This document shows, one piece after another, positions 25,652-44,580 of a stretch of 44,580 bases of DNA. The translations under genes and the position numbers were made by a program. This stretch comes from Leptotrichia sp. OH3620_COT-345 (GTDB lineage: Bacteria > Fusobacteriota > Fusobacteriia > Fusobacteriales > Leptotrichiaceae), in assembly GCF_003932895.1 (NCBI RefSeq), contig NZ_RQYW01000018.1, forward strand, positions 1-44,580. The letters are read 5' to 3'. The notes below the pieces were generated by a model. The model was not told the DNA's origin and searched no databases. It saw only the letters and a list, made by a program, of their open reading frames with translations. Position 1 is the stretch's first letter; every line of letters begins with the position of its first letter.

Positions 25652-25674
25652 TTTTTACCTCTTAAAACTGTTTT

Positions 25675-27814: not shown

Positions 27815-27869
27815 TTTTCTCTTACGACTATATAGTCATATCTCCTTTTCTGAATTTTCCGTTGCTTAC

Positions 27870-28754
27870 TTATTTTCTGTTCCGTACCTTTCTCCACATA
27901 TATATCCCTATAGGTAATCCCAATAATAATGATAACTTTGAATAACATTCTCTGTAAATTTTCTCAAAGGGATAACTCGCTATTTTAGCAAATTTATAAT
28001 AAACGGCATTATTTAAAATTCTATCTTTTAAAGACATTTTATGTTTGTTTCTCTCATTATGATAAAGTGCCTGCCCTTTAGGATTTCCAAGCAGTAAATT
28101 GTTATATTTTGCAGTAAGTCCGTCTTCATGATATTGCTTTATTTCTATTTTTTCATTTATATAAATCATTTTATATTTTTCGGCTATTCTGTTATAAACT
28201 GATGCTTCGGTAATAAATTTTTCTCCTTCAAAAACAGGAAATTTATATTTTTTTATTATTTCTGTCCTGAACATTAATCCTTTATCACCTTTTACACTAT
28301 ATTTATTATAAATATCAAACTGTGTTTCAATCATTTTATTATAGGGAAATTCTGTCCCGATGATTTTTCCGTCAGGATATATTGACAAATAACCCATCCC
28401 TGCAATTTCATCATTTTTCTCATATTCTTTCCAGTACTCCAATATAATTTCAAGACCATTATTTATATATTTATCATCGGAATCAAGGCATATAAACAAT
28501 TCTCCTATAGCTTTATCCAAAGCAAAGTTATATGCTCTCTGTTTTCCACCATTTTTTTCATAATAATATTTTATATCCAACTTATTTTCCTGCATAAACT
28601 TTTTCACAATTTCATCAGTTCCGTCTGTAGAACCGTCATCCACTATCAACCATTCAAAATTTTTATATGTCTGATTCTGAAGAGACATATACAATTTCCT
28701 CAATAATTCTTTTCTATTATATGCCGGAGTAAATACAGTAAATTTTATTTTCAT
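27870..28754 (-). CDS. Family 2 glycosyltransferase
   Basis: 294 residues. GT-A features: FTVFTPAYNRKELLRKLYMS, LIVDDGSTDGT, and LFICLDSDDKY with D91-S-D93-D as the metal site. YEKNGGKQRAYNFAL precedes it, typical of this subgroup. The C-terminal KLSLLLGLPIGIYMW is an amphipathic/hydrophobic segment likely to touch the membrane. It sits between wzx (18-bp gap) and the polymerase gene in the manC operon; ATG preceded by AGAGTGG. Donor sugar unknown, although GDP-mannose made by the operon's ManC is one candidate. Confidence 0.92.
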   Translation of the reverse strand: MKIKFTVFTPAYNRKELLRKLYMSLQNQTYKNFEWLIVDDGSTDGTDEIVKKFMQENKLDIKYYYEKNGGKQRAYNFALDKAIGELFICLDSDDKYINNGLEIILEYWKEYEKNDEIAGMGYLSIYPDGKIIGTEFPYNKMIETQFDIYNKYSVKGDKGLMFRTEIIKKYKFPVFEGEKFITEASVYNRIAEKYKMIYINEKIEIKQYHEDGLTAKYNNLLLGNPKGQALYHNERNKHKMSLKDRILNNAVYYKFAKIASYPFEKIYRECYSKLSLLLGLPIGIYMWRKVRNRK

Positions 28755-28772
28755 TTTCCACTCTTTCTCTTT

Positions 28773-30230
28773 TTATTTAACAATTTTCCCTTTTATTTTT
28801 AAGATAATATTGATTATTTTAACATACACTTCTTTGTTTATTATTAATTTTGCCACAATCACCAGATATACTATTTTCATAACAAATTTTGTCCAAGTAA
28901 TTTCATCACTTGAAAGGTAAAATATTACAGGATTTACTATTATAAGAAGATACATAAGAAATTTCCTGTAATTAAAGGATATTTTATATTTTTTCCTTAT
29001 AACCGCCATTTCCATCATTGCTCTGAACAAAAATGCCAGTAATGTAGTCCATGCTGCAATTATCGGACCTGTTTCAGGAAATTTCGGAATAAATATAAGA
29101 TTTCCTGCCAAATTAAAAATCATGGCAAATAATGTAAAATAAAAAATATATATACTGTCCTCATAAAAATGAAAAAAATAATCAAGACAATACAATGCCT
29201 GTATTACAATTCCTGCAAGTATAAGAGGCATATAATTTATAGCTTTCAAATAACTTTTTGGAAATATAAGGCTTATCCCTTCAGGAGCAAAAAGCTGTGC
29301 CAGTACACATACAAATGAAATAATAGCTATAAAATTTTCTACACTTCCTGTAATTTTAGGATTATTTTTATCTTTTTTCATAGCTTCATAAAATTCAGGT
29401 GTCCAACTATCTACAAAAGAACCTTTAATCACAGAAAATGCACGCCCTCCTGAAGCTGCAAGAGTATATCCTCCAACAGCTGCAAGAGAAACATAATTTA
29501 CTAATACAAGCCTGTCACTTAAATTTACAATTTGGTCCGTCAACTCTATAAAAATAAGAGGAATCCCATTTTTTAAAGAATATTTCATATGTTCAGCTTT
29601 TAATTTCAGTTTAAATTTCCTGAAATATCCTCTGAAATAATATACCAATATAAGCAAAGAAGACCCGAGATTTGCAACTTGATTTCCAAAAATACCCATT
29701 TTTAAATATTTTATAAAATATATAGCAAGTATATAATTGGAAAACAGGCTTAATGTACTCCCAAGCGCTACTTTCATATACATTCTCTTCATTCTAAAAA
29801 GTGTAATTCCTAAAGTATTTATAGCATTTATCGAAGCTATTAATATGGCAGTTGTAATTAAAGGACTGTATGTTATTTTATCAAGATTGACAATATATGA
29901 AAATAGCTTTTTAGCAGCAGGCGTAAGCATAAATATAAATAATGCTCCATTAAAAAGCATTATAACCAGAAATGACGAGAACATATAACTTCCCATTTCA
30001 TTTTCATTTTCTTTAAGGTCTACATATTTTTTCATTTGTGCGTTATAAATCCCAAGTCCCAGAATTATAGTAGCCATTGTTGTAACAGAATCGAGTGTTC
30101 CCGCTATTCCGAATTCTTCAGGTGTGAGTAACCTTGTTATAATGGGAAGAAATATGAGCGAGCCCATTTTTGTCACAATATTCATAAGAGAATAAACCAT
30201 TGTTCCTTTTAATAAATTCTTGCTGTCCAT
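28773..30230 (-). CDS. Wzx-type polysaccharide flippase
   Basis: 485 residues from ATG at 30230 (MDSKNLLKGTMVYSLMNIV), which has AAAGGGA a few bases upstream. A 12-codon longer form from a GTG at 30266 is possible but lacks a ribosome site. About 12-14 membrane segments and the MATE/MOP-like N-terminus KGTMVYSLMNIVTKMGSLIFLP, ITRLLTPEEFGIAGTLDS are typical of repeat-unit flippases. It moves the undecaprenyl-linked unit across the inner membrane for the polymerase. It lies between kpsF and a GT2 in the same operon. Confidence 0.92.
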   Translation of the reverse strand: MDSKNLLKGTMVYSLMNIVTKMGSLIFLPIITRLLTPEEFGIAGTLDSVTTMATIILGLGIYNAQMKKYVDLKENENEMGSYMFSSFLVIMLFNGALFIFMLTPAAKKLFSYIVNLDKITYSPLITTAILIASINAINTLGITLFRMKRMYMKVALGSTLSLFSNYILAIYFIKYLKMGIFGNQVANLGSSLLILVYYFRGYFRKFKLKLKAEHMKYSLKNGIPLIFIELTDQIVNLSDRLVLVNYVSLAAVGGYTLAASGGRAFSVIKGSFVDSWTPEFYEAMKKDKNNPKITGSVENFIAIISFVCVLAQLFAPEGISLIFPKSYLKAINYMPLILAGIVIQALYCLDYFFHFYEDSIYIFYFTLFAMIFNLAGNLIFIPKFPETGPIIAAWTTLLAFLFRAMMEMAVIRKKYKISFNYRKFLMYLLIIVNPVIFYLSSDEITWTKFVMKIVYLVIVAKLIINKEVYVKIINIILKIKGKIVK

Positions 30231-30367
30231 ACTTCCCTTTCTTTCATAATTTTTTCTGAATTTCACAATACTTTTTCAAACAGGAAAATTATATTTTCTA
30301 TAAATATATACTATTTAAATTATATAATTGTGAAAATTTTATAAAATTTTGTTTAGCAAAATTCGCC

Positions 30368-31339
30368 TTATCTCAGTCCTATCAAATCATGAATCCTTAT
30401 TATCCCGACTACATTTCCATTTTCCACTACGGGTAGGACATTTATCTGACTTTTTCTATTTTCCATAAGATTTAAAGCATCCATTGCCATTGCATCTTTA
30501 TCAATTGCAATAGGTGTATTTATCATTATATCCTTTGCTTTATATGAAAAAAACTTTTCTTTATGAACCAAAGCCCGTCTTATATCTCCCTCAGTTATTA
30601 TTCCCTTTAATTTCCCATTTTCTTTCCCCGTTTCCGAGATACAGACTGCTCCCATTTTTTTTTCTGTCAATACAAGCAGTACATTTTCTATTTCAGTATC
30701 TTCAGATAAAATAGGAAGTTCATTTCCTGTATGCATCAGATCAGATACAGTCAAAAGAAGTCGTTTTCCCAGACTTCCTCCCGGATGATACTTTGCAAAA
30801 TCATTTTCCGTAAAGTTTTTCATTTTCATAAGTACTACTGATAAAGCATCACCCATTACAAGAGTAGCTGTAGTTGAGCTCATAGGTGCGGTTCCCAGTT
30901 CATTTGCTTCTTTTTCAACCCCGATATCTATAACAAGCTTAGCATGTCTTGCTAAAGCTGAGTTTCTATTCCCCGTAAAAGCTACTATTTCTGCTCCTAT
31001 TTTTTTTATCGGTGTCATTATACTCAATATTTCATCCGAATTACCGCTATTTGAAATGGCAATGACCACATCTCCGTTATTTATCATTCCCAAATCTCCA
31101 TGTAATGCTTCGGCTGCATTTACAAAAATAGCGGTTGTTCCCGTTGAGGCCATTGTAGCAGCTATTTTTTTCCCTATAATTCCTGATTTTCCTATTCCCG
31201 TAATTACAACTTTATTATTTCTTATACTATTTATCATAACTGCAAGCTTTTCAAGTTCACCATTTATTTTATTTTTAACCTTTTCCAATTCAGAAATTTC
31301 AATATCAAAAACATTTCGAGCTTCTTTTAAAATATCCAC
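30368..31339 (-). CDS. kdsD: KpsF/GutQ-family sugar-phosphate isomerase (D-arabinose-5-phosphate isomerase)
   Basis: 323 residues, full length. An N-terminal SIS domain (VVITGIGKSGIIGKKIAATM at about 44-63, EALHGDLGMI with H80-G-D82, ISNSGNSDEILS, then TAPMSSTTATLVMGDALS) is followed by two CBS domains (DLMHTGNELP and IMINTPIAIDKDAMAM). The family converts ribulose-5-phosphate to arabinose-5-phosphate, the first step to Kdo. No kdsA, kdsB or kdsC is in the window, so its link to this glycan is through operon position only. Start is GTG at 31339 with AGGAGG upstream, 22 bp after manC. Confidence 0.93.
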   Translation of the reverse strand: MDILKEARNVFDIEISELEKVKNKINGELEKLAVMINSIRNNKVVITGIGKSGIIGKKIAATMASTGTTAIFVNAAEALHGDLGMINNGDVVIAISNSGNSDEILSIMTPIKKIGAEIVAFTGNRNSALARHAKLVIDIGVEKEANELGTAPMSSTTATLVMGDALSVVLMKMKNFTENDFAKYHPGGSLGKRLLLTVSDLMHTGNELPILSEDTEIENVLLVLTEKKMGAVCISETGKENGKLKGIITEGDIRRALVHKEKFFSYKAKDIMINTPIAIDKDAMAMDALNLMENRKSQINVLPVVENGNVVGIIRIHDLIGLR

Positions 31340-31361
31340 TTTTTTCCTCCTGCTTCAAAAA

Positions 31362-32459
31362 TTATTTTTTATATTTTTCAATTTTTCCAAGTATTTTCTT
31401 TATTTCCTGACTTTTTTCTTTACTACATACAAGTAGTGCATCTTCCGTATTAACTATGACAATATCCTCAAGACCTATTGTCGCTACAATTTTATGTTTT
31501 TCCTTATTTATTATTATATTTCCTTCAGATTCTATATCTTCATATTTTTCAGATTTAACAATATTTCCATTTTCATCTTTCGAAAATACATCTTCCAGAG
31601 ATTTAAAGCTTCCTACATCATTCCATCCAATATCCACCGGAATTACAGATACCAATTTTGTGTGTTCCATAACTCCAAAATCTATAGATATTTTTTCAAA
31701 TTCGAAAAATTCATTATATATATATTTACTGAGTTTTTCTCCATAAACTTCATCTATATTAATTTCATCTATTTTTTTCTTTATTTTATTAATAACATTT
31801 CTATGAGTTTCCATATATTTTTTAATTTCATTCAGTATAAATTCCGTTTTCCAAATAAACATTCCGCTATTCCACAGATAGTTTCCTTTTTCTATATATT
31901 TTTCAGCAGTTTCTCTGTTAGGTTTTTCCCTAAAACTTTTTACTTTATAAATTTTAAATTTCCTGTCAGATTTATTTGTGTTTTTCATATATTCAATATA
32001 TCCGTACCCCGTTTCAGGATAAGACGGCTTTATTCCAAGAGTGACTATAATATCACTTTCAGCCTTTTCAAAAGCAAACTTCAAGCTTTCAAGAAATTCA
32101 TTTTCACTTTTGATGAGGTGATCTGACGGTAATACTGACATCACACTGTTTTTATACATTTTTTGTATTATTAATGCAGCATATCCTATACATGCCGCCG
32201 TATCTCTTGCCATTGGCTCAAAAATTATATTTTTTTCAGGTATTTCAGGCAGTTCTTTTTTTATAATATCCAAATAAGCAATATTTGTAGAAATAAATAT
32301 TTTTTCCATAGGAATTAATTTTGCAACTCTATCTACCGTTTCCCTTATCATTGTCTTTTCAGATACAAGATCAAGAAACTGTTTCGGTCTTTCATTTGTC
32401 GATAAAGGCCAAAATCTGGTTCCGCTTCCTCCTGCCATTATTAATACAACTTTATCCAT
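31362..32459 (-). CDS. manC: Mannose-1-phosphate guanylyltransferase
   Basis: 365 residues: the nucleotidyltransferase domain and left-handed helix region only, without the fused isomerase domain of long ManC/AlgA proteins. Motifs: VLIMAGGSGTRFWPLS (signature loop), RPKQFLDL, EPMARDTAACIGYAAL, SVLPSDHLI, PSYPETGYGYIEY, FREKPNRETAEKYI, YLWNSGMFIWK and VDIGWNDVGSF. It makes GDP-mannose from GTP and mannose-1-phosphate. A separate mannose-6-phosphate isomerase and phosphomannomutase would be needed; neither is here. It is first gene of the main glycan operon, 45 bp behind an extended -10 promoter; ATG preceded by AGGAG. Confidence 0.95.
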   Translation of the reverse strand: MDKVVLIMAGGSGTRFWPLSTNERPKQFLDLVSEKTMIRETVDRVAKLIPMEKIFISTNIAYLDIIKKELPEIPEKNIIFEPMARDTAACIGYAALIIQKMYKNSVMSVLPSDHLIKSENEFLESLKFAFEKAESDIIVTLGIKPSYPETGYGYIEYMKNTNKSDRKFKIYKVKSFREKPNRETAEKYIEKGNYLWNSGMFIWKTEFILNEIKKYMETHRNVINKIKKKIDEINIDEVYGEKLSKYIYNEFFEFEKISIDFGVMEHTKLVSVIPVDIGWNDVGSFKSLEDVFSKDENGNIVKSEKYEDIESEGNIIINKEKHKIVATIGLEDIVIVNTEDALLVCSKEKSQEIKKILGKIEKYKK

Positions 32460-32503
32460 TTTCTTCTCCTATTAATTTCAAAGTATCTTTTTTTAATAAT
32501 GTT

Positions 32504-32512
32504 ATTATATCA
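32504..32512 (-). promoter_or_regulatory. Extended -10 promoter of the manC operon
   Basis: TGATATAAT on the minus strand fits the extended -10 consensus TGnTATAAT, 45 bp upstream of the manC ATG. No strong -35 is visible at 17 bp. The same nonamer precedes the aldo/keto reductase gene. Confidence 0.5.
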
Positions 32513-32584
32513 TTTTACGGTTATTTATACTATTAATTTATTTTTTCAACTAAAATTATTTCATATTATTCCCAATCCTCCTGA

Positions 32585-32750
32585 TATTTAAAATTTTTCC
32601 GGAAAAATATGAAATTACATTGTTTAGAAAATATCTATCTGAGTATAATAAATTTACTGTTTTTCAAGCATAATAAATATTGTTTAGGAGTTTAAAAATT
32701 TTATAATCATTATCGAGTGTATAAAAATGACAATAAGTCCTTTTAAAACC
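32585..32750 (-). repeat. Dispersed repeat, copy D
   Basis: About 166 bp, with blocks in the same order as copies A-C: tatttaaaatttttccgg, tttttcaagcataataaat, gtttaaaaatttta, then aaaatgacaataagtcctt. Unlike most copies it does not touch a stop codon; the nearest is 170 bp away at 32920. That gap is AT-rich with no supported gene. Confidence 0.7.
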
Positions 32751-33291: not shown

Positions 33292-34146
33292 TTATTCCAT
33301 ATCCAACGGCATTTTTTTGTTAGGTGACGGAAATTCATCTTCCAACAATTTTATATCTTCTTGTTCCAGATTTATTTTCAGACAGTTTACTAATTCCTTC
33401 ATATGTTCGATTTTTGAAGCTTTAGGTATGGAAAGAGTATTTTCCTTGTTTAACATATAACAAAGCAAAACTTGAATCGGAGATATATCGTACTTATTAC
33501 TTACTTTAAGTACACTATGAGAAGTTAGCAATTTTTTTTTTAGTCTTCCTGCCTGCGCAAGAGGGCAGTATGCCATTGTTATTATATTTTTTAAATCAGT
33601 ATACGGTTTTAATGAATATTCTATTCCTCTTGAACCAAGATGATATAAAACCTGATTGACGGCACATTTTTTTCCATCAGGGATACTCATCAATTTTTTT
33701 ATATCATCAATATCCAAATTAGACACTCCCCATTCTCTTATTTTTTGGATTTTTTTCAATTTTTCCATACATTCCACAGTTTCAGACAACGGCACTGTTC
33801 CTCTCCAATGTAGAAGATATAAGTCCAAATAATCTGTACCTAATTTTTTTAATGAATTTTCACATGAATTAAAAATATTGATCTTTCCCGCATTTTCAGG
33901 TAAAACTTTTGAAACTATAAATAGATTTTCTCTTTTATATCCTTTTATAGCTTCTCCAATAAGCCGTTCACTATTTCCGTTTCCATACATTTCCGCAGTG
34001 TCTATTAATGTAATCCCGTTATCAATAGCGTACTTTATACTGTCTATTTCCTCTTTTCTTTCTTTCACGGAATCTCCCATATTCCATGTTCCTATTCCTA
34101 AATTATAAATCTTTTTTCCATTTAATGTTTTTATATATTTTTTCAT
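33292..34146 (-). CDS. Aldo/keto reductase
   Basis: 284 residues. NADPH-dependent (beta/alpha)8-barrel reductase of carbonyl compounds. The catalytic tetrad is complete: D49, Y54, K80 and H113 (LIDTAEMYGNGNSE, FIVSKVLP, DLYLLHWRG). Later motifs WGVSNLDIDDIKKL, AVNQVLYHLGSRGIEYSL and IPKASKIEHMKELV also fit; the IPKAS loop binds the cofactor phosphate. Substrate unknown. It starts the two-gene unit with the DUF1622 gene, with AAGGAG before its ATG and an extended -10 box upstream. Confidence 0.93.
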   Translation of the reverse strand: MKKYIKTLNGKKIYNLGIGTWNMGDSVKERKEEIDSIKYAIDNGITLIDTAEMYGNGNSERLIGEAIKGYKRENLFIVSKVLPENAGKINIFNSCENSLKKLGTDYLDLYLLHWRGTVPLSETVECMEKLKKIQKIREWGVSNLDIDDIKKLMSIPDGKKCAVNQVLYHLGSRGIEYSLKPYTDLKNIITMAYCPLAQAGRLKKKLLTSHSVLKVSNKYDISPIQVLLCYMLNKENTLSIPKASKIEHMKELVNCLKINLEQEDIKLLEDEFPSPNKKMPLDME

Positions 34147-34174
34147 TTTTTTCTCCTTATCCTTTATTATTTTA

Positions 34175-34183
34175 ATTATATCA
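34175..34183 (-). promoter_or_regulatory. Extended -10 promoter of the aldo/keto reductase unit
   Basis: TGATATAAT on the minus strand, about 28 bp upstream of the ATG, in the context AAAAAATGATATAAT. -35 poor. Confidence 0.45.
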
Positions 34184-34244
34184 TTTTTTAAAATATATTA
34201 TTATAAAAATTTTATTCTTTAATGATTTCTTTAAAATTAAATTA

Positions 34245-34287
34245 AATAAAAAACAGTATACTACTTTTAAAATAAGTTGTATACCGT
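34245..34287 (-). terminator. Intrinsic terminator of the cdaR-like gene
   Basis: Stem between 34253-34265 and 34275-34287 (core GTATAC/GTATAC) with one T-T mismatch and one plus-strand A-C that becomes G-U on the minus RNA. It is followed on the minus strand by six T, then ATTT. About 100 bp after the gene's stop. Confidence 0.85.
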
Positions 34288-34388
34288 CTTTTCTTTGAAA
34301 GCCTGCTACTATATTATTTACTATTTATGTAATTCTGCTTTTTATCTTCAACATTTAAATTTTATAACCTAAAAAATATATAAAAAAA

Positions 34389-35477
34389 TTAATATAACAA
34401 CAATGCTAATTTTAACAATGAAAAATCAGCATAATTCCTTAAATCCAGTCTTGTTTTCTCATTAAATTTCTTTATTTGATATTGAAGTGTATTTTCATGT
34501 AAAAATAAAACTTTTGATATCTTTTTTATGCTTCCGTTATATTTTTCATAAGCATAAAATATTTTTTTAAATTCTTCTATTTCTTCATCTGTCACATTTT
34601 TAAATATCCCATTTAAAAATTCCATTTTTTTCTCCACTGAAATATCATATAAAAGTTTTCCATAACTCATACAATTATAAAATTTCCTATTTATTTTTAC
34701 CGTTTTTGCCCATGATAAAGCTTTCAAAGCTTCATTATATGATTCATGCAATTTTTCAAAATCTTTCTTGAAACTTCCTACTCCAAAAACAAGTTTTACT
34801 TGACTTGAATTTTCGACTTCTTTTAAAAATTCATTTACCTCCCTGAAATTTCTGTTTATAAGAATTCCTATAAATAGAAACTCGGTATTTACAAATATTT
34901 CTCCTTCATTTATATTGTTTTTTATAACTTTAAAAACCTTTCTTTTCAATTCCAGAAATTTTATTTTTTCATCTTTATACTCAATTATAATAACTACTAC
35001 GTTTTCAGACTTTTTTATTAAAAAATACTCTTTTGAAGTCATTGTCACTGAACTTTTTATAGCTCTGTTTTCTATCAAATCATTTACAATTATTTTCTGA
35101 TATTCATCCTCATTAATCAATTTTTCATTTATATATGCTTCTTTTATAAGAATTTCAGTCATTTTTTTTATAATATTGCCGTATTTTTTTATTTCTTCAT
35201 ACTCTCCTGAAATTCCTATAACTCCTACTACTTCATTTCTGAAAACTACAGGAAAATTAATTCCCTTTTTTGCTCCTATATATTCTCCGTCAACATTAAC
35301 AACTATTCTTTCTTTAGTTTTTACTGCAAGATATGCTCCTTCGTGAAATGAACCTACCCTTTCAGGATTCGTACTTGCTATTATTTCACCTTTCACATTA
35401 ATATAATTTAGATTTCTTCCTATAATATCTTTTAATTCCTTTACTATTTCCTGAGCAACTTCATCGTAAGTCAACAT
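34389..35477 (-). CDS. CdaR-family (sugar-diacid) transcriptional regulator
   Basis: 362 residues in the CdaR order. The N-terminal diacid-recognition domain is about 1-135 (NLNYINVKGEIIASTNPERV, SFHEGAYLAVKTKERI, GINFPVVFRNEVVGVIGISG). A GGDEF-like central region follows (SQVKLVFGVGSFKKDFEKLH, SYNEALKALSWA). The C-terminal PucR-type HTH is in the last ~60 residues (SIKKISKVLFLHENTLQYQI). Family members sense glycerate, glucarate or related diacids and activate catabolic genes. No such catabolic gene is beside it, so its target is elsewhere or different. It is monocistronic, with a good promoter and a good terminator; ATG at 35477 with GAGAGGA upstream. Confidence 0.9.
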   Translation of the reverse strand: MLTYDEVAQEIVKELKDIIGRNLNYINVKGEIIASTNPERVGSFHEGAYLAVKTKERIVVNVDGEYIGAKKGINFPVVFRNEVVGVIGISGEYEEIKKYGNIIKKMTEILIKEAYINEKLINEDEYQKIIVNDLIENRAIKSSVTMTSKEYFLIKKSENVVVIIIEYKDEKIKFLELKRKVFKVIKNNINEGEIFVNTEFLFIGILINRNFREVNEFLKEVENSSQVKLVFGVGSFKKDFEKLHESYNEALKALSWAKTVKINRKFYNCMSYGKLLYDISVEKKMEFLNGIFKNVTDEEIEEFKKIFYAYEKYNGSIKKISKVLFLHENTLQYQIKKFNEKTRLDLRNYADFSLLKLALLLY

Positions 35478-35553
35478 TTTCTTCTTCCTCTCATTTCCCT
35501 TTTCAGTTTTCCACTTTTAAAGGGCTTTATCTGTTTTTCATAATTCTATATTA

Positions 35554-35582
35554 ATTATAATTTTTAAAAATTTAAATTTCAA
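35554..35582 (-). promoter_or_regulatory. Sigma-70-type promoter of the cdaR-like gene
   Basis: TTGAAA (35582-35577), exactly 17 nt, then TATAAT (35559-35554) on the minus strand, about 77 bp upstream of the ATG. The hairpin at 35592-35631 sits directly upstream of the -35 box. Confidence 0.7.
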
Positions 35583-35591
35583 ATGTTTTTA

Positions 35592-35631
35592 ATAAGGTAT
35601 ATTTCAGAGCAAACTCCGAAATACACCTTAC
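35592..35631 (-). other. Long hairpin 4 of the post-autotransporter tract
   Basis: A 17-bp stem (35593-35609 with 35614-35630) closes on a CAAA loop (UUUG in the minus RNA). Two plus-strand A-C mismatches, and an extra outer pair at 35592/35631, become G-U in minus-strand RNA. No U-run follows at once. Confidence 0.6.
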
Positions 35632-35664
35632 ATAACTTAATAAGAATGAAAAAGAGTTAAATTT

Positions 35665-35687
35665 GCTGTTAAGGAATTTTTAACAGC
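35665..35687 (-). other. Hairpin 3 of the post-autotransporter tract
   Basis: Perfect 8-bp stem GCTGTTAA/TTAACAGC with a 7-nt loop. CTCTTTTTC follows about ten nt later on the minus strand. Confidence 0.5.
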
Positions 35688-35731
35688 CTTATCTTATAAT
35701 TCATATAATTATATAACTATAAAATTATAAG

Positions 35732-35767
35732 AGTATTACAATTTACCGAAAAATAAATTGCAATACT
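35732..35767 (-). other. Hairpin 2 of the post-autotransporter tract
   Basis: 14-bp stem (35732-35745 with 35754-35767, AGTATT-CAATTT/AAATTG-AATACT). The single plus-strand A-C mismatch is G-U on the minus RNA; 8-nt loop. Confidence 0.55.
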
Positions 35768-35798
35768 TTTACAATTTTTATCGGCTTTAAAAAGTTTC

Positions 35799-35839
35799 TG
35801 TCAGAGAGATTCTGAATTATAAAGAAAATCTCTCCGACA
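35799..35839 (-). terminator. Hairpin 1: probable terminator of the autotransporter operon
   Basis: 13-bp stem (35799-35811 with 35827-35839, TGTC-GAGAGATT) that is complete only as minus-strand RNA, where position 35803/35835 pairs G-U. It is followed by GAAACTTTTT and lies 60 bp after the autotransporter stop. Confidence 0.6.
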
Positions 35840-35898
35840 ATTTATTATTTCACGAAATTATTTAAATGTGTTATATGTTCAATACAATTATTGAAATA

Positions 35899-38800
35899 TT
35901 AGTATATAGCTCTGAAGCCTATTCCTCCTCTTACATTCTTTCCTTTTGTATCATAACCTGCATTGAATGTTATTCCGAATTTCTGATTATCTATTCCTAC
36001 ATTCAAATCTGCTTTAAAGTTTCCTTTTCTATTATCCTTTTCAGATCTGATATTGAAATATCCTGCATCAGTATATGCCACTTTAGCTTTATTTTTTACA
36101 TTTGCAACCTGTCCAAGTTCATTTTCATACCCGAGACCCAATGCTGCTGTAAATGTGGCTCTTTCTCCTATTATCTGTCTATACTTAAATTCTGTTCCCA
36201 CTTCAGGTTTTATAGAAAAATAATCATTTCCTTTTACTTCCAATCTTATTTCTCCATTTTTTTCCTTTACAGCTCCAAATTTCCCGTACTCCAGTTTCAA
36301 ATTTCCATATGGTTTTATGCTGAATTTTTCTCCTGTTCTAAATTCCTTGCTTATTTCATTTTTCAATGCAAGTCCATATGTATTATAAGTTGATTTTGCT
36401 TTAAAGATTTCATCTACTATCAAGTATCTTCTTTCCATTTCACTTCTTCCAGCAAATCCCTCTCCTGATACTGTCCAGTTAAGGCTTCCGTTATTATCAA
36501 ATGCTTTTGAGCTAAATACTCCGAGTTTCAGCATTGTTGTACTTTCTTTAGATTTTCCGATATCTTTAAATTTGAATCTGTTATTTATCACACCTGCATA
36601 CCAACCTGTACTATTTCCTAACTTAATTGTTTCATTTTCACTAACATAAGCCACACCATAAGCATTATTAGTGTAATTTATAACTCCTGCAGTATCTGTA
36701 TTATATTTTCCTTTTACTCCGAATGTAGTTATTCTGTTAGATTTTTTTGAAGTGTTTTCCTGCATTTTTCTTATATTATCAAACTCTTTATTCAGTAATA
36801 CGCTTGTTGAATTTAATCTCTGTTGTATATTTGCATATTGATGTCCCATCATCTGATCTATTGCTTGATAAAAAAGAACTTCTTCATTATTTCCTATTTT
36901 ATTCAATTTATTGAATACCGCTTTTTCTCTTGTATCTATCCCTTCAATTCCATATCTTTTTTCAAGTCCGTCAAGGAAATTATAAGTGTCTGTTTTTTCC
37001 ACAGGTGTTGCTTGATTTCCTGCATATTCAGTGTAAGGAATTTTTGCCATATATATTTTCTGAGGTGTTCCGTTTCCATCAATTATAGGTAATGCCATCC
37101 ATGTTAACGAAGCGGAATTAATGGACCACTCTATCCCTCTTCTTCCTTTCATAACTGCACGATAAGGATTCAGTATATTTTCTCCTACTTCTATATATTT
37201 ACCGTTCACTTTTTCTGCAGCTTCAGGCCCTATAAGTAATTCAGCTTTTTCTACCCCCAGTGCAGATAATCCGTTTATAGGATTGGTTCCTCTCAGTGTA
37301 TCTACATACATTCCAATTTTACTGATAAGCGGTTTTTCAATTGTTCCATATGTTTTATTTACTGAATCAATATTAGGTACAAGTATTCCGTTTAAAGTAA
37401 TTTCAGCAGTAGTTGAACCCGCCGGAGCAAATATTCTTACTCCTCCTGCACTTTTATCAAGAGGTTTTCCTCCCGTCGGATCATATTCTCCATCTTCTTT
37501 CGCTCCACTTCCTACTGTTATGTCACCGTAGTTTACTATTGTAACATTACTTAAAGGAGAATTTACTCTGTAAATTCCGAATCCCCCCGGAGAATCTATA
37601 TGAACTTTAGCACCGGCATGATTTACAAACTTGGAATTATTGCTTAACACTATTCCAACTGCTCCATTAACTGTCCCTGTTGTTCTTATTTCTCCATAGT
37701 TATGTCCTTCAGCACCTTCATCAAGATACATTCCTATAGTTCCTTCCGCTGACAGATATATCTTTCCATGATTTTCAGCTATTGATTTATTAGAACCTGT
37801 ACTTCCGGTTGCATACATTCCTATACTTGATATGCCGTTTACATTTATAACTCCTGTAGGACCGTTTACAACTTTTGCATAATCGAGATTTTTGTACCCT
37901 GCTGCCATTCCTATCCCGAATTTACTTGTTCCGGGATTTGAACTACCTACACTTATTGTAGCATTATTTGTAGCCGTTCCTCCATTTATGCTGTACATCC
38001 CGACATTCCCTATACCTGTTACAAAATCCATATCTGCATTATTCACTACTGTTCCGGCTGAGTATAGTCCATATGTTTCTCCAGCAGTAGATACCAATTT
38101 AGCATTATTTATAATACTTGCCGTGCTGTCATTTGAATAAAGGTATACCGATTTTTCTTTTAAAGATACATTTGAACCTATTACATTTGTAAATTTCGTA
38201 TTTCGTCCTTTAAATACATATCCATAAGAATTATTACCTATATTCATTTTACTTCCGTTATCGGTTATCTGAATTCCGTTAGAAGAATTTTCCGTAAATA
38301 CTCCTACAGCATTGTTATCTCCTATATTAAATGTAGTTCCTGCATTTATTTTAATATTGTCAGTTGCTACCGGTAAATTCTGCTCTGCTACACTGAATAT
38401 TCCTACTCCGTTTTCTCCAACATTGAATACTGAAGCCCCTCCTGTTTCTACGTCTTTTCCGTATATTCCGTATGAATTTTTTCCTGCTTCTATTATTCCG
38501 TTATTTACAATTTTTACATTTTGATCTTTTGTAAACATTCCTATTCTTAATACACTTTCATTTGAAGAATCTCCTATATCTATTTTTCCTGTATTTATAA
38601 GTGTCCCCATTTCAGAACCAAACATTCCTGCTGATAAATCTGCTTCTAATTTGATTATTCCACTATTTGTTAAAGAGGTAAACTTTTTACCTGCCATTCC
38701 TACAGCTTTCTGTCCTGACATTGTTATTGTTCCTGTATTTTGTGCTGCTATATTATGAATATTTCCTCTACTGTCATTATTTTCTACATAAATTCCTACG

Positions 38801-41800
38801 GCACTTTCACCATCAAGATTTATGAGATTATTATTTGTTGCATTTATATTTCCGTCTGTTCCCGTTGTCTGGTTAAATTCATTTATTTTAAGTCCTAAAG
38901 TATCACTTCTGTAGGATAATCCCAAAATTCCTATAGAATTTTTTCCTCCTACATTAATTGTTCCTCCATTTACAACATCAGAATCATTTACGGCATAAAC
39001 TCCGACTGCTCCGTCATTTGCAGCATTAATTCCTGATCTTTCAACATTTACAACTGCACCGTTATTTATATCTACTTGCCCATAGTTTATAAATAATCCT
39101 ACTGCTCCTGATCCTGCATCCGTTCTGTCTACACTTACTTCAGTATTATTTTGTAAAGTTATTCCTGTTTGATTTTTATTTGTCGCAGTGGCACTTGAGT
39201 TCATATCAATACCTACAGGAGTAAATATGCCTATAGAATTTAACTGTGTTCCATTCAGATGAGCCGTTACTTTATTTCCACTAATAAGGTTTACTTTTGC
39301 TTTTTGTACTGCCAGATACTTTGTAAATACATAGTCATCAGTACGATTCTGTGTCGGATCTGCAGCTATGCTTTTATCAATATTTTTATCTATTCTGTAA
39401 TCATCTAAACCATTTATTGCAGCTAACCTGTAATCTGTAAATCCGTAAGTATCTATTATCTGCATATTTGCGACTTTACCTTTTACGTTGTTAAACAGAT
39501 TTGTTGCACTTAATCCTCCTGTTACATCTCTTAGATTAAATACTGTTACATCATTTGAATAAATATGGGCTTTTGTATTACTGTCAGTAACAAGTGAACC
39601 TGCTGTTCCCTGTTCAAATCCTACTCCGTCACCTCTAAGTTCTATTTCAGCTCCTTTTATATTAACTGAACCTCCTCCACTTGTAAATACAGCATAACCG
39701 CTACCGTCATATTTTAATTTGGCATTTTCAAGATTAAGAATACTTCCTGTTCCTAAACCGTTCTGTCCTGTAGAAACAACACCTGAAGCCCCTTTTTTGA
39801 CTTCTATTTCAGCTCCGTTAAGATTAGCCGTAGCTCCTCCTTCGATATATACGCCTGTTCCTTTATCAGTACTTGCAGTATCATCAATTGTTATCTTCAT
39901 TGCCTTCCCGGCTCCAAGAACAGGATCTATTTTAACGGTTCCTCCGTTACTGTATATTCCCGTAGAGCCGTTTTTGGCATTTATTGTTGTATCTGCACCT
40001 CCATTAATACTCAAAGTTCCTTCATTATTATATATTCCCGTATTACTTTTTCCGTCTAAAGATAAAGCTCCTTCTAATGTAAAAGTTCCCAAATTATATA
40101 TTGCTGCACCCTGACTCCCTTTGTAGTTTATTGTTCCTGAGCTTTTTCCGGTATTATTTTTATCTATAGCTATTCCGATGCTTTTATTTCCATTAATTAT
40201 CAATGTTCCTTTATTTTCTGCCGTTGCTCCTGAAGTTGCTCCCACTGACAAAAAATTTCCTGCAGTAAGTCCGTAAAATTCATCCATTGTGGATGTCATT
40301 GTTTTTCCTGTATTAAAAGTTACCGTTCCTGTTTTTCCCGCTTGCATGAAAGTATTGTTTTTCTTTGCACTTGTTAAAGTAAAATCTTTATCTACTATTA
40401 TTTCATTTTTATCACTTCTTATTAAAACTCCCTTTGAAGCATCACCTCCGAAGTTAAATGTATCTCCTATTTTTACACTGTCCAGAGTAATAGCGTCCGT
40501 ATTTACAGTAGCTGTATCGGAACTTCTTAAAAACCCTATATTACTTTCCCCATTAACAAGAACTTGAATTTTTTCCAGATTTGAAATAGGATCTCCTGTA
40601 GATCTTCCTTGAGCTATTGCTAATCCGACATTTTGACTTCCATTCAGAGTAATAACTCCGTTTTCTCCTGAAACTGTTCCCATTGCATCATAATATGCAG
40701 GAGAATTTCCATGTCCAAAAGCTGATGTTGTAGTATAATCTTTCTGTCTATAACCGTAACTTTTAGTACCGTCTATTGTTATATTCCCCAGTTTCACATT
40801 TGTATTCGGACCTTTTAAATTAACATCCGCACTGTTTGAATGATAATGAAAATAACCGTAATCTACTCCGATACTGAGACTTGCATTTCTTCCTATTGAA
40901 ATACTTCCATCATTTATAGTTTCAGGTTTCTTTTTAAAATATGAATTTATATCATTTTGAAAATACTCTGTATCTATCATTATTCCAATCATATTTTCTC
41001 CACTGTTCATATTTATGCTACCTGTATTTCTTAATATTGAAGTAGTAATACCGTTATTTACATTGGGAACGGCCGAAGTTCCTCCTCCATGTCCCGCCAG
41101 AAGTTGATGTTCAATTCCTACAATTGTTCCTCCGCCTGTTGTACTCATATTTAAAGTTCCGCTTAATGTAAATGTTTTATCAGGGGCTGATACTGCTCCA
41201 TATTCATATGGATTTAAACTTATGAATAGCGGAAAATTACTTTTACTTGAAACTACGTTGTACACTCCCTGCACATCTACATCCCTATCATCAACATGAT
41301 TTATAAAAGCATTTAAAGCTACACCTGAAGCTCCCGGTGAAAGAACACTATTTCCTCCGCTATAACTTACATTCAGTTCTCCTCCTGTCCACGAAGTGTT
41401 ATTATTATTTATCTGTATATTTAAATCTGCTGTAGTACTGTAAGTACTCCAGTTTTGAGCAATTATATTGGTTCTTGGTAAACTTGCTCCCCCAGGTTGT
41501 CCAAATCCCGCTCCGTTGAATGTAATATTTACGGGATCAAATAATTCTATTGCCGGCTTAGGAGGAAGATCGGGTGCTTTAGGAGGAGCTACAAGTTTAG
41601 GTTCAAATGCAGGCAATATTATTGCAGGAGCACTTGGTACAGTAACAGGAGAATTTTTACTTACAAATCTTGGAGTTATCCCTGCATTCACTTTTATTGA
41701 TATGGGAGGTTCGGTAACCAGTTTTACACTGGCCAATCCATATCCCGATGTCAATCCTCTTCTATAATTTGTAGAGGAGGATCTTAAGTTTGTACCTGTT

Positions 41801-42288
41801 CCTAATAAATTATAATTCTCACTATCCAATGGAACATATCTGTTTATTTCATTAGTATCTCTTTCTAAAACCCCTTCAAAAGGATACTTTTCTTTTTTAT
41901 CTCCTTTTCCCTTATATGTTCCTCTCCATTCGTTATAATAATATCCTGCTCCAAATTGCCACGATTTCCATGGAGATTTTATTACCTGCTCTCCCTGCTC
42001 CATTAGTTGTATTAATTCAAGATTTGCATTTTTCAGTAGTCTGTTATTTTCTCTTTTTGCCTGTTTAAATGCTATATGTAAATCCTTTATCGATGTATTC
42101 AGTTCTTTTCTTGTCAACTTTATCTCATTCTCCGTATTTTTTACTTCAGGTGATGTCAATATATTTGAAAATGAAAACATACCCATTAAAAGAAAACTAA
42201 AAAGCAGACCTTTTGTATATCTTACATCTTTTGTCCTTTTGGCAAAAGCTCTTAAACTTTTTTCTATATTTTTCAGATTGTTATTCAC
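35899..42288 (-). CDS. Giant autotransporter adhesin (type V secretion)
   Basis: 2129 residues. The long N-terminus (NNNLKNIEKSLRAFAKRTKD, then GLLFSFLLMGMFSFS, about 1-42) is the fusobacterial autotransporter-associated extension and signal. A short coiled coil follows (50-100). Next come KSWQFGAGYYYNEWRG and a Pro-rich linker at about 213-252. The passenger (about 255-1830) is Gly/Asn/Thr-rich with recurring short beta-helix rungs (GKNSIGIL, GENGVGIF, NNSYGYVF). From about 1860 to the end is a beta-barrel ending FRAIY, an outer-membrane-insertion type terminus. It is exported by Sec, inserted in the outer membrane and likely displays the passenger as adhesin; the ligand is unknown. Start is GTG with AAGGGG ten bases upstream. 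Last gene of the adhesin operon, 23 bp after ompA-like. Confidence 0.93.
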   Translation of the reverse strand: MNNNLKNIEKSLRAFAKRTKDVRYTKGLLFSFLLMGMFSFSNILTSPEVKNTENEIKLTRKELNTSIKDLHIAFKQAKRENNRLLKNANLELIQLMEQGEQVIKSPWKSWQFGAGYYYNEWRGTYKGKGDKKEKYPFEGVLERDTNEINRYVPLDSENYNLLGTGTNLRSSSTNYRRGLTSGYGLASVKLVTEPPISIKVNAGITPRFVSKNSPVTVPSAPAIILPAFEPKLVAPPKAPDLPPKPAIELFDPVNITFNGAGFGQPGGASLPRTNIIAQNWSTYSTTADLNIQINNNNTSWTGGELNVSYSGGNSVLSPGASGVALNAFINHVDDRDVDVQGVYNVVSSKSNFPLFISLNPYEYGAVSAPDKTFTLSGTLNMSTTGGGTIVGIEHQLLAGHGGGTSAVPNVNNGITTSILRNTGSINMNSGENMIGIMIDTEYFQNDINSYFKKKPETINDGSISIGRNASLSIGVDYGYFHYHSNSADVNLKGPNTNVKLGNITIDGTKSYGYRQKDYTTTSAFGHGNSPAYYDAMGTVSGENGVITLNGSQNVGLAIAQGRSTGDPISNLEKIQVLVNGESNIGFLRSSDTATVNTDAITLDSVKIGDTFNFGGDASKGVLIRSDKNEIIVDKDFTLTSAKKNNTFMQAGKTGTVTFNTGKTMTSTMDEFYGLTAGNFLSVGATSGATAENKGTLIINGNKSIGIAIDKNNTGKSSGTINYKGSQGAAIYNLGTFTLEGALSLDGKSNTGIYNNEGTLSINGGADTTINAKNGSTGIYSNGGTVKIDPVLGAGKAMKITIDDTASTDKGTGVYIEGGATANLNGAEIEVKKGASGVVSTGQNGLGTGSILNLENAKLKYDGSGYAVFTSGGGSVNIKGAEIELRGDGVGFEQGTAGSLVTDSNTKAHIYSNDVTVFNLRDVTGGLSATNLFNNVKGKVANMQIIDTYGFTDYRLAAINGLDDYRIDKNIDKSIAADPTQNRTDDYVFTKYLAVQKAKVNLISGNKVTAHLNGTQLNSIGIFTPVGIDMNSSATATNKNQTGITLQNNTEVSVDRTDAGSGAVGLFINYGQVDINNGAVVNVERSGINAANDGAVGVYAVNDSDVVNGGTINVGGKNSIGILGLSYRSDTLGLKINEFNQTTGTDGNINATNNNLINLDGESAVGIYVENNDSRGNIHNIAAQNTGTITMSGQKAVGMAGKKFTSLTNSGIIKLEADLSAGMFGSEMGTLINTGKIDIGDSSNESVLRIGMFTKDQNVKIVNNGIIEAGKNSYGIYGKDVETGGASVFNVGENGVGIFSVAEQNLPVATDNIKINAGTTFNIGDNNAVGVFTENSSNGIQITDNGSKMNIGNNSYGYVFKGRNTKFTNVIGSNVSLKEKSVYLYSNDSTASIINNAKLVSTAGETYGLYSAGTVVNNADMDFVTGIGNVGMYSINGGTATNNATISVGSSNPGTSKFGIGMAAGYKNLDYAKVVNGPTGVINVNGISSIGMYATGSTGSNKSIAENHGKIYLSAEGTIGMYLDEGAEGHNYGEIRTTGTVNGAVGIVLSNNSKFVNHAGAKVHIDSPGGFGIYRVNSPLSNVTIVNYGDITVGSGAKEDGEYDPTGGKPLDKSAGGVRIFAPAGSTTAEITLNGILVPNIDSVNKTYGTIEKPLISKIGMYVDTLRGTNPINGLSALGVEKAELLIGPEAAEKVNGKYIEVGENILNPYRAVMKGRRGIEWSINSASLTWMALPIIDGNGTPQKIYMAKIPYTEYAGNQATPVEKTDTYNFLDGLEKRYGIEGIDTREKAVFNKLNKIGNNEEVLFYQAIDQMMGHQYANIQQRLNSTSVLLNKEFDNIRKMQENTSKKSNRITTFGVKGKYNTDTAGVINYTNNAYGVAYVSENETIKLGNSTGWYAGVINNRFKFKDIGKSKESTTMLKLGVFSSKAFDNNGSLNWTVSGEGFAGRSEMERRYLIVDEIFKAKSTYNTYGLALKNEISKEFRTGEKFSIKPYGNLKLEYGKFGAVKEKNGEIRLEVKGNDYFSIKPEVGTEFKYRQIIGERATFTAALGLGYENELGQVANVKNKAKVAYTDAGYFNIRSEKDNRKGNFKADLNVGIDNQKFGITFNAGYDTKGKNVRGGIGFRAIY

Positions 42289-42311: not shown

Positions 42312-42854
42312 TTAATTTCTCTTTATCAGTTTAAATTCTATCCTTCTATTTAAAGCTCTTCCTGCTTCAGTGTTATTTGATGCAACCGGCTCCATCTCTC
42401 CTTTTGATTCAGTTCCCACTATTCTATCAGGAGTCAGTCCAAGTTCGAGTAATTTTTTCTTCGCATTTTCTGCCCTTCTCAATCCAAGCTTCATATTGTA
42501 AATGTCTTTTCCTTTGGAGTCTGTATGCCCCACCACTATTACATCATAGTCATTAACTGTAACATAATCTATCAGATTTTTCAAAACACCGTGATATCTT
42601 GGAGAAACCTTATCTTTATTAAATCCGAATTTTAGTGTCTCATCGCTTAAAACCACCGTCATCTCCCTGGGAAGATTTCCTTTAGAATCCTTTATTGCAT
42701 TTATATCTATTTCTTCCAATTCCAATGCATTTATTCTTAAAGTTTCTTCTCTTATCTGTCTTGCTGAAGGTTTTTTTTCAGCAAATATGGATAAAGAGAT
42801 CACTAATAAAGACAGTATCTTCACTATTGTGACATTTCTTGATTTTCTTTCCAT
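42312..42854 (-). CDS. OmpA-family peptidoglycan-binding protein
   Basis: 180 residues: a signal segment (ILSLLVISLSIFA), a ~45-residue linker, and one OmpA C-terminal domain (about 64-180), with no beta-barrel. Motifs: YDVIVVGHTDSKG, NMKLGLRRAENAKKKLLELG, IVGTESKGE and ALNRRIEFKL. D112 and R127 are the pair that binds diaminopimelate in peptidoglycan. It likely anchors the operon's surface complex to the cell wall. Start: ATG at 42854 with AGAGG seven bases upstream, overlapping the preceding lipoprotein gene by 31 bp in another frame. Confidence 0.92.
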   Translation of the reverse strand: MERKSRNVTIVKILSLLVISLSIFAEKKPSARQIREETLRINALELEEIDINAIKDSKGNLPREMTVVLSDETLKFGFNKDKVSPRYHGVLKNLIDYVTVNDYDVIVVGHTDSKGKDIYNMKLGLRRAENAKKKLLELGLTPDRIVGTESKGEMEPVASNNTEAGRALNRRIEFKLIKRN

Positions 42855-43081
42855 GCTTCTGCCTCTCTTTCAAGAGATTTATATTGTGAACTGTATTCTA
42901 TCTGCCCCTCATTTCTTAATTTTTCAAGATTGTCGGACGGTTTTACAAATTTATGTTCTTTTAAATACACTTCTATATTATCAAGTCTGTCTGTGTTATA
43001 ATTTATCAATTTTGTATTTGTACATGATATCATCAATATTCCCAATGCAGATATTACTAAAATTTTCTTCATTTTTTTCAC
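42824..43081 (-). CDS. Small lipoprotein of the adhesin operon
   Basis: 85 residues. Signal peptide with lipobox LMISC (C20 in the GTG-started form), then a short helical body (NLEKLRNEGQIEYSSQYKSL). Unknown function. Two starts are possible: GTG at 43081 or ATG at 43072. The only Shine-Dalgarno, AAGGAG, lies 33 nt upstream of the GTG but is brought to within four nt by a hairpin, which favours the GTG. The end of the gene overlaps the ompA-like gene by 31 bp. A small lipoprotein among the genes preceding a large adhesin suggests a helper role, unproven. Confidence 0.85.
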   Translation of the reverse strand: MKKMKKILVISALGILMISCTNTKLINYNTDRLDNIEVYLKEHKFVKPSDNLEKLRNEGQIEYSSQYKSLEREAEAWKENQEMSQ

Positions 43082-43085
43082 TATA

Positions 43086-43120
43086 AATACGGCTTTTAAT
43101 TTTTTTACCGTATTCTCCTT
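43086..43120 (-). promoter_or_regulatory. Shine-Dalgarno bridged to its start by a hairpin
   Basis: On the minus strand AAGGAG (43120-43115) is immediately followed by AATACGG (43114-43108), a 15-nt loop and CCGTATT (43092-43086), then TATA and the GTG start at 43081. The 7-bp stem is perfect. Folding would set the effective spacing at 4 nt. Confidence 0.5.
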
Positions 43121-43182
43121 TCATTTTTTGATATTTTGATATTATATTTATAATTTTTACTTTAATACTGTCTTACTGTTTC

Positions 43183-43656
43183 TTATTTTATTTTATCTTT
43201 AATTCCTTCCAATCTTTCTTCCATTTTTTCCAATGCTTCATTTGTTTTGTGGAATGTTTCTATGTTAGCATTTATTTCTTCTACTCTTCTCTTGATTCTT
43301 TGTACTTCCACATCCATTTTTTCACTTTCCGTCATATTTTTCTGTTTTGCTTTCATTGCTTTTATTTCAGATTTTTTCTTCATTTGAGCTTCTTTTTTCA
43401 TTTTAAGTTCCTCTGCTTTTCCTCTTTGAGACTGTTTTTTCAACTCATTTGCTCTTTTTTGTATGCCTGTAGGTGTATTTACATTTACAGGAATTTCTTC
43501 AGACATCATTTCTTCCTGTTTTATTTCCTTTACCTCATGAGTCTGTTTTTTTCTTGCTTCTCTCAGTAATCTTTCTACTGCCGGATCGGAATAACTTAGC
43601 TGAGTGATGGAAAAAAACACCAACCCCAATATTCCCATCATATTTTTTATTTTCAT
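43183..43656 (-). CDS. Exported coiled-coil protein of the adhesin operon
   Basis: 157 residues. Signal peptide (GILGLVFFSITQLSYS), then DPAVERLLREARKKQ and a long Lys/Glu/Met-rich helical stretch with heptad character (about 65-157: RANELKKQSQRGKAEELKMK, VQRIKRRVEEINANIETFHK). The short DPAVERLLREARK segment recalls the ADSAKEILKRARE start of the next upstream protein, so the two may be distant paralogues. Its composition and place fit FadA-like small helical adhesion proteins, but the FadA C-terminal signature is absent. ATG with AGGAGG seven bases upstream. Role unknown. Confidence 0.85.
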   Translation of the reverse strand: MKIKNMMGILGLVFFSITQLSYSDPAVERLLREARKKQTHEVKEIKQEEMMSEEIPVNVNTPTGIQKRANELKKQSQRGKAEELKMKKEAQMKKKSEIKAMKAKQKNMTESEKMDVEVQRIKRRVEEINANIETFHKTNEALEKMEERLEGIKDKIK

Positions 43657-44189: not shown

Positions 44190-44371
44190 TTTTTCCTCCT
44201 TTAAATAAATATTTTACAACATACAATTTCTTTAAATTTCTTCACAATTTGATTATATTTGATATTAAATATTTTTTATTTCTTTTGACATATTTAATAT
44301 TTTTATTTATAAATTAATATCCAAGTAAATCCTTTCTCCACATTGTCACAGTCAACCAAGTTTCGGAGTTC

Positions 44372-44415
44372 ACGGATAACTTGAGTATGAGGGCTGCAAT
44401 GAGCCCTCATAAAAA
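44372..44415 (-). repeat. Dispersed repeat, copy E, with a perfect hairpin
   Basis: On the minus strand it starts right after the FadA-like stop: TATGAGGGCTCATTGC, then AGCCCTCATACTC and GTTATCCG. TATGAGGGCT/AGCCCTCATA makes a perfect 10-bp stem with a 6-nt loop. No U-run follows, so it is not a standard terminator. It aligns with copy B at 30 of 39 positions. The remaining gap to 44189 is AT-rich and shows nothing else. Confidence 0.65.
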
Positions 44416-44580
44416 CTAATTCATCACTGACAGCATTGCTTCAAGCTCATTTATCTTATGCTCTTTTTCTTTTATAAGTTTCGCTATATTTTTATAATAT
44501 GTGTCATAATTATTAAGTACTTTTTTGTATTTATCTCTATGCCATCTTACTTCCGAATCTTTTTTCAGTTTCTCAAATAC
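44416..44580 (-). CDS. FadA-family adhesin, C-terminal part (5' part beyond window edge)
   Basis: The last 54 residues are visible. They run from VFEKLKKDSEVRWHRDKYKK through VLNNYDTYYKNIAKLIKEKE to HKINELEAMLSVMN and TAG at 44416. The amphipathic helix with RW-x5-Y and the ending INELEAMLSVM is the C-terminal signature I associate with FadA-type adhesins, small antiparallel helical hairpins that assemble into filaments on fusobacterial surfaces. It stands upstream of four small envelope genes and the giant autotransporter, so it probably belongs to the same operon. The N-terminus and signal peptide are not in the window. Confidence 0.8.
   Translation of the reverse strand, partial: VFEKLKKDSEVRWHRDKYKKVLNNYDTYYKNIAKLIKEKEHKINELEAMLSVMN

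What the first reader, a model, noticed from the sequence alone, without database searches (positions are those of the whole stretch)
35592..35839. Four hairpins in tandem after the autotransporter gene
Four separate stems of 13, 14, 8 and 17 bp lie within 250 bp between the autotransporter stop and the cdaR promoter. One terminator would be enough. In three of them every plus-strand A-C mismatch is a G-U pair in minus-strand RNA, so they are selected as RNA on the operon's sense strand. Possible roles: a structured 3' UTR that stabilises a very long mRNA, a processed small RNA, or stacked terminators shielding cdaR. Only the first has a modest U-run.
Basis: partly seen in the sequence, partly recalled or inferred. 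Interest (0 to 1): 0.55.

Follow-up and report, generated by a model that had tools for sequence, protein, structure and literature searches.

The report
Hairpin-rich tail of an autotransporter mRNA
Downstream of a large surface-protein gene, the messenger RNA can fold into four hairpins that probably form its untranslated tail and stopping zone; the cluster is unusually tight for this genome but otherwise of an ordinary kind.

Summary
The four hairpins are real and lie where stated. Transcription order (minus strand): A 35839-35799, B 35778-35721, C 35687-35665, D 35630-35593. The 421-nt gap folds at -111.3 kcal/mol as minus RNA (z -9.6; plus z -5.9). A, B and D pass a strict palindrome test; none of 1019 intergenic regions in 1.93 Mb of the same genome holds three, and the tightest other triple spans 552 bp against 247 here. 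About 0.9 such region is expected from the background rate, so it is extreme, not impossible. The A-C/G-U argument is a tautology as worded, but the strand asymmetry behind it exists (6 G-U to 1 A-C) and is general here (92:21). Of eleven related autotransporter genes none has more than one strict palindrome downstream. No homologue of the tract was found in 97 other phylum genomes (DNA) or 32 other family genomes (covariance models), so covariation is untestable. Best reading: a structured 3' UTR and termination zone ending at D, insulating the cdaR promoter. Ordinary in kind; termination unproven.

The parts
35899..42288 (-). autotransporter gene, 2129 aa (Pfam Autotransporter beta-domain), upstream of the tract in transcription
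35799..35839 (-). hairpin A (H4 in scripts): 13 WC + 2 G-U, -18.5 kcal/mol, starts 59 nt after the stop codon; U5 displaced, poor terminator score
35721..35778 (-). hairpin B (H3 in scripts): 25-position AT-rich stem; 16-pair core 35767-35732 firm, outer part competes with an alternative hairpin 35731-35693
35693..35731 (-). alternative AU-rich hairpin (17 pairs in the MFE, mean probability 0.37-0.51), exclusive with the outer part of B
35665..35687 (-). hairpin C (H2 in scripts): 8 WC, -7.4 kcal/mol; no U-tract directly after it on the sense side
35632..35664 (-). pyrimidine-rich linker (CUCUUUUUCAUUCUU) that can pair with the cdaR Shine-Dalgarno region or with the end of the autotransporter ORF; neither pairing significant against shuffles
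35593..35630 (-). hairpin D (H1 in scripts): 15 WC + 2 G-U, -21.8 kcal/mol, followed by UUAUUAAAAA; best candidate 3' end of the autotransporter transcript
35554..35582 (-). sigma-70-like promoter TTGAAA-17-TATAAT (11 of 12) upstream of cdaR, 10 nt past hairpin D
   Evidence: consensus match only
34389..35477 (-). cdaR-like regulator (Diacid_rec + HTH_30), downstream gene

Best explanation
The tract is the structured 3' UTR and transcription-termination zone of the autotransporter gene. RNA polymerase leaving that gene transcribes hairpins A, B and C, whose stems lack good adjacent U-tracts and would act at most as pause or weak release points and as barriers to 3'-5' exonucleases. Most transcripts would then end just after hairpin D (near 35590-35585), a strong stem with the best U-tract of the four, leaving a tail of about 310 nt and keeping read-through out of the cdaR promoter ten bases further on. 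Shown: the stems, their excess over chance, the strand asymmetry, the U-tract ranking, the position of the promoter-like site. Inferred: that transcription reaches D, that D terminates, that A to C slow polymerase or protect the RNA.
For: Minus-strand folding far beyond shuffles (z -9.55) and stronger than plus (z -5.91). G-U over A-C 6:1 on the sense strand here and 92:21 over 73 palindromes of score 15 or more in co-oriented regions of the same genome, the sign expected when stems act as RNA. D has the best sense T-score (2.57) and a recalled d'Aubenton-Carafa index of -15.9, close to the hairpin after paralogue L041 (-14.5), while A, B and C score -71.9, -38.3 and -74.6. A starts 59 nt after the stop and D ends 10 nt before the promoter-like site, so the stems fill the space between gene end and next promoter. 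In Fusobacterium nucleatum term-seq found mainly stem-loop plus poly-U ends, median 3' UTR about 62 nt, 16 over 300 nt among 663 termination sites (PMC11005410, passages).
Against: No hairpin here has the canonical U-tract that most paralogues carry; D is below the background median (2.57 against 3.24), and the simple scan lists no minus-strand terminator here. No RNA data exist for this locus. No homologue, so no covariation. The clustering could be the tail of a random distribution (about 0.9 such region expected).
Confidence: 0.55

Rival explanations
1. Relic junction: the hairpins are left-over terminators of genes that once stood between the autotransporter and cdaR. Gain and loss of accessory genes stacked several eroded terminators in one gap, with no joint function.
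For: Both sides look accessory: cdaR has no match in the 2 congeners held and the next gene only a 35% match in one, while the neighbouring polysaccharide block 24878-32516 matches at 79-86% DNA identity (G002 over most of it, G001 over part). The U-tracts of A and C are displaced or absent.
Against: Stems are still nearly perfect (A, C and D have no mismatch other than G-U), which decay should have spoiled. No gene remnant was seen, but I looked only at ORFs (a 25-aa and an antisense ORF).
Confidence: 0.2
2. Chance: three long palindromes happen to fall together in one of the genome's intergenic regions.
For: Poisson expectation 0.4-0.9 region with three.
Against: Tightest other triple in the fetched 1.93 Mb spans 552 bp against 247. 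Chance clustering would not make the single stems accidental: each is far beyond shuffles.
Confidence: 0.1
3. Source of a 3'-UTR-derived small RNA: processing leaves a stable fragment ending at D, with the pyrimidine-rich linker 35664-35632 as seed, which could pair with Shine-Dalgarno regions or autotransporter mRNAs.
For: Stable stems on both sides of an open linker; in the folds the linker pairs with the cdaR SD region (16 pairs) or the ORF end (15 pairs). sRNAs that repress autotransporter operons exist in F. nucleatum (FoxI, FoxJ; PMC11005410, passages).
Against: No conservation found; pairing with the SD is matched by 36 of 300 shuffles and 19 of 267 background genes, with the ORF end by 74 of 1000 shuffles. 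D is not a strong terminator.
Confidence: 0.08
4. DNA-level operators: palindromes B and D bind a regulator (CdaR or another) upstream of the cdaR promoter.
For: D ends ten bases upstream of the -35 element; the arms of B are also direct repeats of each other at 78%.
Against: Mismatches are biased 6:1 to the kind that RNA pairing tolerates; no arm of B or D recurs clearly above dinucleotide-shuffled controls in 1.93 Mb (6 shuffles each, so a weak control); upstream regions of 7 cdaR homologues (of 12 loci returned, own locus, fragments and weak matches left out) hold 1 strict palindrome in all, of different sequence.
Confidence: 0.07

Closest known systems
Hairpin-cluster intrinsic terminators (Gupta and Pal 2021, PMC8355165; abstract, passages and the section on poly A/U trails read)
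   Same: Several hairpins in one inter-operon region, first one within 80 nt of the stop (59 nt here), U-tracts absent or poor; F. nucleatum is one of their 13 genomes.
   Different: Their clusters need gaps under 15 nt; the gaps here are 20, 33 and 34 nt, unless the uncertain hairpin 35731-35693 forms. Their stems are mostly 4-10 bp; three here are 13 or more.
Canonical intrinsic (Rho-independent) terminators, as after most of the 11 related autotransporter genes
   Same: Stem on the sense strand between genes; D has a short U-tract.
   Different: In 10 of 11 paralogues a stem has a T-score of 3.45-5.2; here four stems, none above 2.6.
Tandem terminators of strongly expressed bacterial operons (recalled, from no call)
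   Same: More than one stem between two transcription units.
   Different: In the textbook cases each stem carries its own U-tract.

Membership tests
Canonical intrinsic terminator (each hairpin) | stable stem on the sense strand | tested here: met
Canonical intrinsic terminator (each hairpin) | U-tract directly after the stem | tested here: inconclusive
   Not met for A (0.17) and C (0.61); B 2.35 and D 2.57 are intermediate, background median 3.24 of 69. The simple scan found no minus-strand terminator in 35000-36500.
Canonical intrinsic terminator (each hairpin) | RNA 3' end maps there | not testable with these tools
   no RNA data held
Hairpin-cluster termination unit (PMC8355165) | gaps under 15 nt between hairpins | tested here: not met
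   gaps 20, 33, 34 nt from the coordinates; would be met for B core, alternative hairpin and C if 35731-35693 forms (P 0.37-0.51)
Hairpin-cluster termination unit (PMC8355165) | first unit within 80 nt of the stop | tested here: met
   59 nt
Known structured RNA family (Rfam 15) | match at gathering score | tested here: not met
   with E up to 10 only sub-threshold matches, mostly eukaryotic miRNA families
Conserved 3'-UTR-derived small RNA | conservation in relatives | tested here: not met
   0 of 32 other family genomes with two single-sequence covariance models; DNA search of 98 phylum genomes gave, outside the own locus, only short matches of 39-52 bits in 22 genomes (ten inspected)
Conserved 3'-UTR-derived small RNA | discrete stable transcript | not testable with these tools
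   needs small-RNA sequencing
Dispersed palindromic repeat (REP/MITE-like) | several copies in the genome | tested here: not met
   own-genome DNA search: 3 other short matches, all in the stretch after D; arms of the hairpins not clearly above shuffled controls in 1.93 Mb

The most novel reading that the evidence does not exclude
A species-specific regulatory RNA from the autotransporter 3' UTR: fragment C-linker-D is released by processing and its CUCUUUUUCAUUCUU seed pairs with the Shine-Dalgarno of cdaR in read-through transcripts (silencing them while the cdaR promoter's own mRNA escapes) or with the similar 3' coding ends of the paralogous autotransporter mRNAs.
Probability: 0.05. Interest if true: 0.5.

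Novelty: new member of a known kind. Interest (0 to 1): 0.2.

Why it matters
If right, it is one more case of a gene whose transcript ends in a multi-hairpin zone without a strong U-tract, in a lineage where most related genes use a single U-tract terminator. It would be a natural test of whether stems without U-tracts terminate transcription or only protect the RNA. The genome-wide count (G-U over A-C, 92:21) is a small general result: intergenic stems in this genome carry the mark of function as sense RNA.

Tried and rejected
Homologues for covariation: DNA of the intergenic region in own genome, 40 genomes of relatives, own included, and 98 phylum genomes, own included. Outside the own locus only short matches turned up; the ten inspected are AT-rich pieces in other contexts, the best (L005, 75% over part of B) without the B palindrome. 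Plasmid collection: none. Patterns of hairpin D: 0 exact in genome contigs, 0 degenerate in viral contigs; the window's own or very near records may be left out there. cdaR protein in genome contigs: 70 pattern stretches, none confirmed. Single-sequence covariance models of C-D and A-B in 33 family genomes: only the window itself.

Read-through silencing of cdaR by SD pairing: present in the fold, not significant. Pairing of the linker with the ORF end: 74 of 1000 shuffles as good. Dispersed repeat or operator motif: not supported. Small ORFs in the gap: only a 25-aa plus-strand ORF and the 175-aa ORF antisense to the autotransporter. MFE against length-matched regions: the window's excess per nt was reached by 1 of 103 co-oriented regions of 330-520 bp, with 10 shuffles each.

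Limits of the background: the gene caller is a simple longest-ORF one, so some 'intergenic' regions hold RNA genes or miscalled ends; regions under 40 bp (60 bp) were dropped; 23% of the genome was not fetched. The d'Aubenton-Carafa T-score and index are recalled, not taken from a call; for paralogue L025 my trimming leaves an A before the U-run and understates its terminator. Stems after the paralogues scored were picked by eye.

Full report
What is there. The finding lies in the 421-bp gap between a 2129-aa autotransporter gene (35899-42288, minus; Pfam Autotransporter) and a cdaR-like regulator (34389-35477, minus; Diacid_rec and HTH_30). Both genes read on the minus strand, so minus-strand RNA is sense on both sides. 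In transcription order the hairpins are A 35839-35799, B 35778-35721, C 35687-35665 and D 35630-35593 (scripts call them H4, H3, H2, H1). The region folds at -111.3 kcal/mol on the minus strand, z -9.55, 0 of 100 shuffles as stable; on the plus strand -83.9, z -5.91. Ensemble pairing is firm for A, the core of B, C and D; the outer part of B competes with an AU-rich hairpin at 35731-35693. Single-hairpin energies on the minus strand are -18.5, -21.6, -7.4 and -21.8, each better than at least 999 of 1000 shuffles.

Is it more than chance. I used a strand-neutral palindrome test (at least 11 Watson-Crick pairs, loop 3-15, score 15 or more). A, B and D pass; C does not. In 1000 shuffles of the region 996 had none and 4 had one. 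As a genomic control I took 97 stretches of the same genome (1,934,303 of 2,516,687 bases, C18 not among them). Of 1019 intergenic regions of at least 40 bp, none has three; among 740 co-oriented ones, 675 have none, 61 one, 4 two. Over all 181 such palindromes in the fetched DNA, coding included, the tightest triple spans 552 bp; here it is 247. [quoted passage not shown], 40 stretches). The MFE excess per nt over shuffles ranks second among 104 length-matched co-oriented regions, the window included. So the single stems are certain and the cluster is the most extreme seen in the fetched DNA, but one such cluster per genome is within reach of chance.

The strand argument. The right count is G-U against A-C on the sense strand: 6 to 1 in A, B and D. 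The same count over 73 palindromes of score 15 or more in co-oriented regions of the genome is 92 to 21, so sense-RNA constraint is the rule for such stems here, and this locus follows it. Seven mismatches alone are weak evidence (binomial 0.06).

Terminators. After trimming to the last G-C pair, the T-scores (d'Aubenton-Carafa, recalled) are A 0.17, B 2.35, C 0.61, D 2.57; the median of 69 strict palindromes in co-oriented regions is 3.24. Other own-genome matches were dropped because they do not reach the gene's end or sit at a contig end (L031 and L033 gave no downstream sequence). Of the 11, 6 have one strict palindrome and 5 none; stems with T-scores of 3.45-5.2 were found after 10 of 11, and L025 gives 1.96 with my trimming. 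So neither gene length nor gene family explains four hairpins.

Conservation. cdaR has no match in the two congeners, while the polysaccharide block at 24878-32516 matches them at 79-86% identity, in G001 over part only; the junction autotransporter-cdaR was therefore found only in this species among the genomes held. DNA searches of 97 other phylum genomes gave only short matches, and the ten inspected are AT-rich; plasmids gave none; Rfam none at gathering scores; two single-sequence covariance models found only the window among 33 family genomes. Absence of homologues means that covariation could not be tested; it is not evidence against structure.

Mechanism. The best-supported reading is a structured 3' UTR and termination zone: A, B and C as pause sites and nuclease barriers, D as the likely 3' end, ten bases before a TTGAAA-17-TATAAT promoter-like site for cdaR. 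In F. nucleatum mapped ends are mainly stem-loops with poly-U, the median 3' UTR is about 62 nt and 16 exceed 300 nt among 663 termination sites (PMC11005410, passages), so a tail of about 310 nt would be long but not unknown. Hairpin clusters as terminators without U-tracts have been proposed from RNA-seq slopes in 13 genomes, F. nucleatum among them (PMC8355165; abstract, passages and section on poly A/U trails); the spacing rule of that definition is not met here (gaps 20, 33, 34 nt). I therefore do not file it as a member, though it may work alike.

Rivals. Relic terminators left by gene turnover at an accessory junction (0.2), chance clustering (0.1), a 3'-derived small RNA (0.08), DNA operators (0.07). 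The linker between C and D can pair with the cdaR Shine-Dalgarno region or the autotransporter ORF end, but shuffles do as well in 36 of 300 and 74 of 1000 cases.

Verdict. Real, local and found in this species only among the held genomes; ordinary in kind; the decisive evidence is RNA 3'-end mapping.

Noticed in passing
window 32521-32712: Dispersed repeat of about 120-190 bp with more than 15 further matches in the own genome (for example on C1, C2, C3, C4, C9, C10, C13-C15 and at window 23281-23745) and others in congener G001, at roughly 70-80% identity; it lies upstream of the mannose-1-phosphate guanylyltransferase-like gene.
   Followed up: no
window 44331-44421: Short segment with many matches in congeners G001 and G002 at about 74-97% identity (query 160-250); perhaps a shared leader or promoter of surface-protein operons.
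   Followed up: no
window 33292-35477: cdaR and the aldo/keto reductase gene have no good match in the two congeners although the neighbouring polysaccharide genes (24878-32516) do: perhaps an accessory insertion.
   Followed up: partly
L126:4103-4608 (own genome, contig C8) and the 3' end after the paralogue in L025: A pair of hairpins (first stem TCTAACCTTTTTTGTAAAAAAGGTCAGA) occurs twice in one gap; a similar stem follows another autotransporter gene.
   Followed up: no
L088:1878-2211 and L113:17094-17480 (own genome): Two intergenic regions as strongly or nearly as strongly structured as the window's, in stretches without an Rfam match at gathering scores.
   Followed up: no
own genome contigs C8, C15, C23, C30, C32, C33, C34: Autotransporter beta-domain matches at or near contig ends, suggesting that the assembly breaks in similar paralogues.
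   Followed up: no
window 42312-43656: OmpA-like gene and a weak FAD-I-family match (34.2 bits, cut-off 35) upstream of the autotransporter; operons pairing fadA3 genes with autotransporters are described in F. nucleatum.
   Followed up: no
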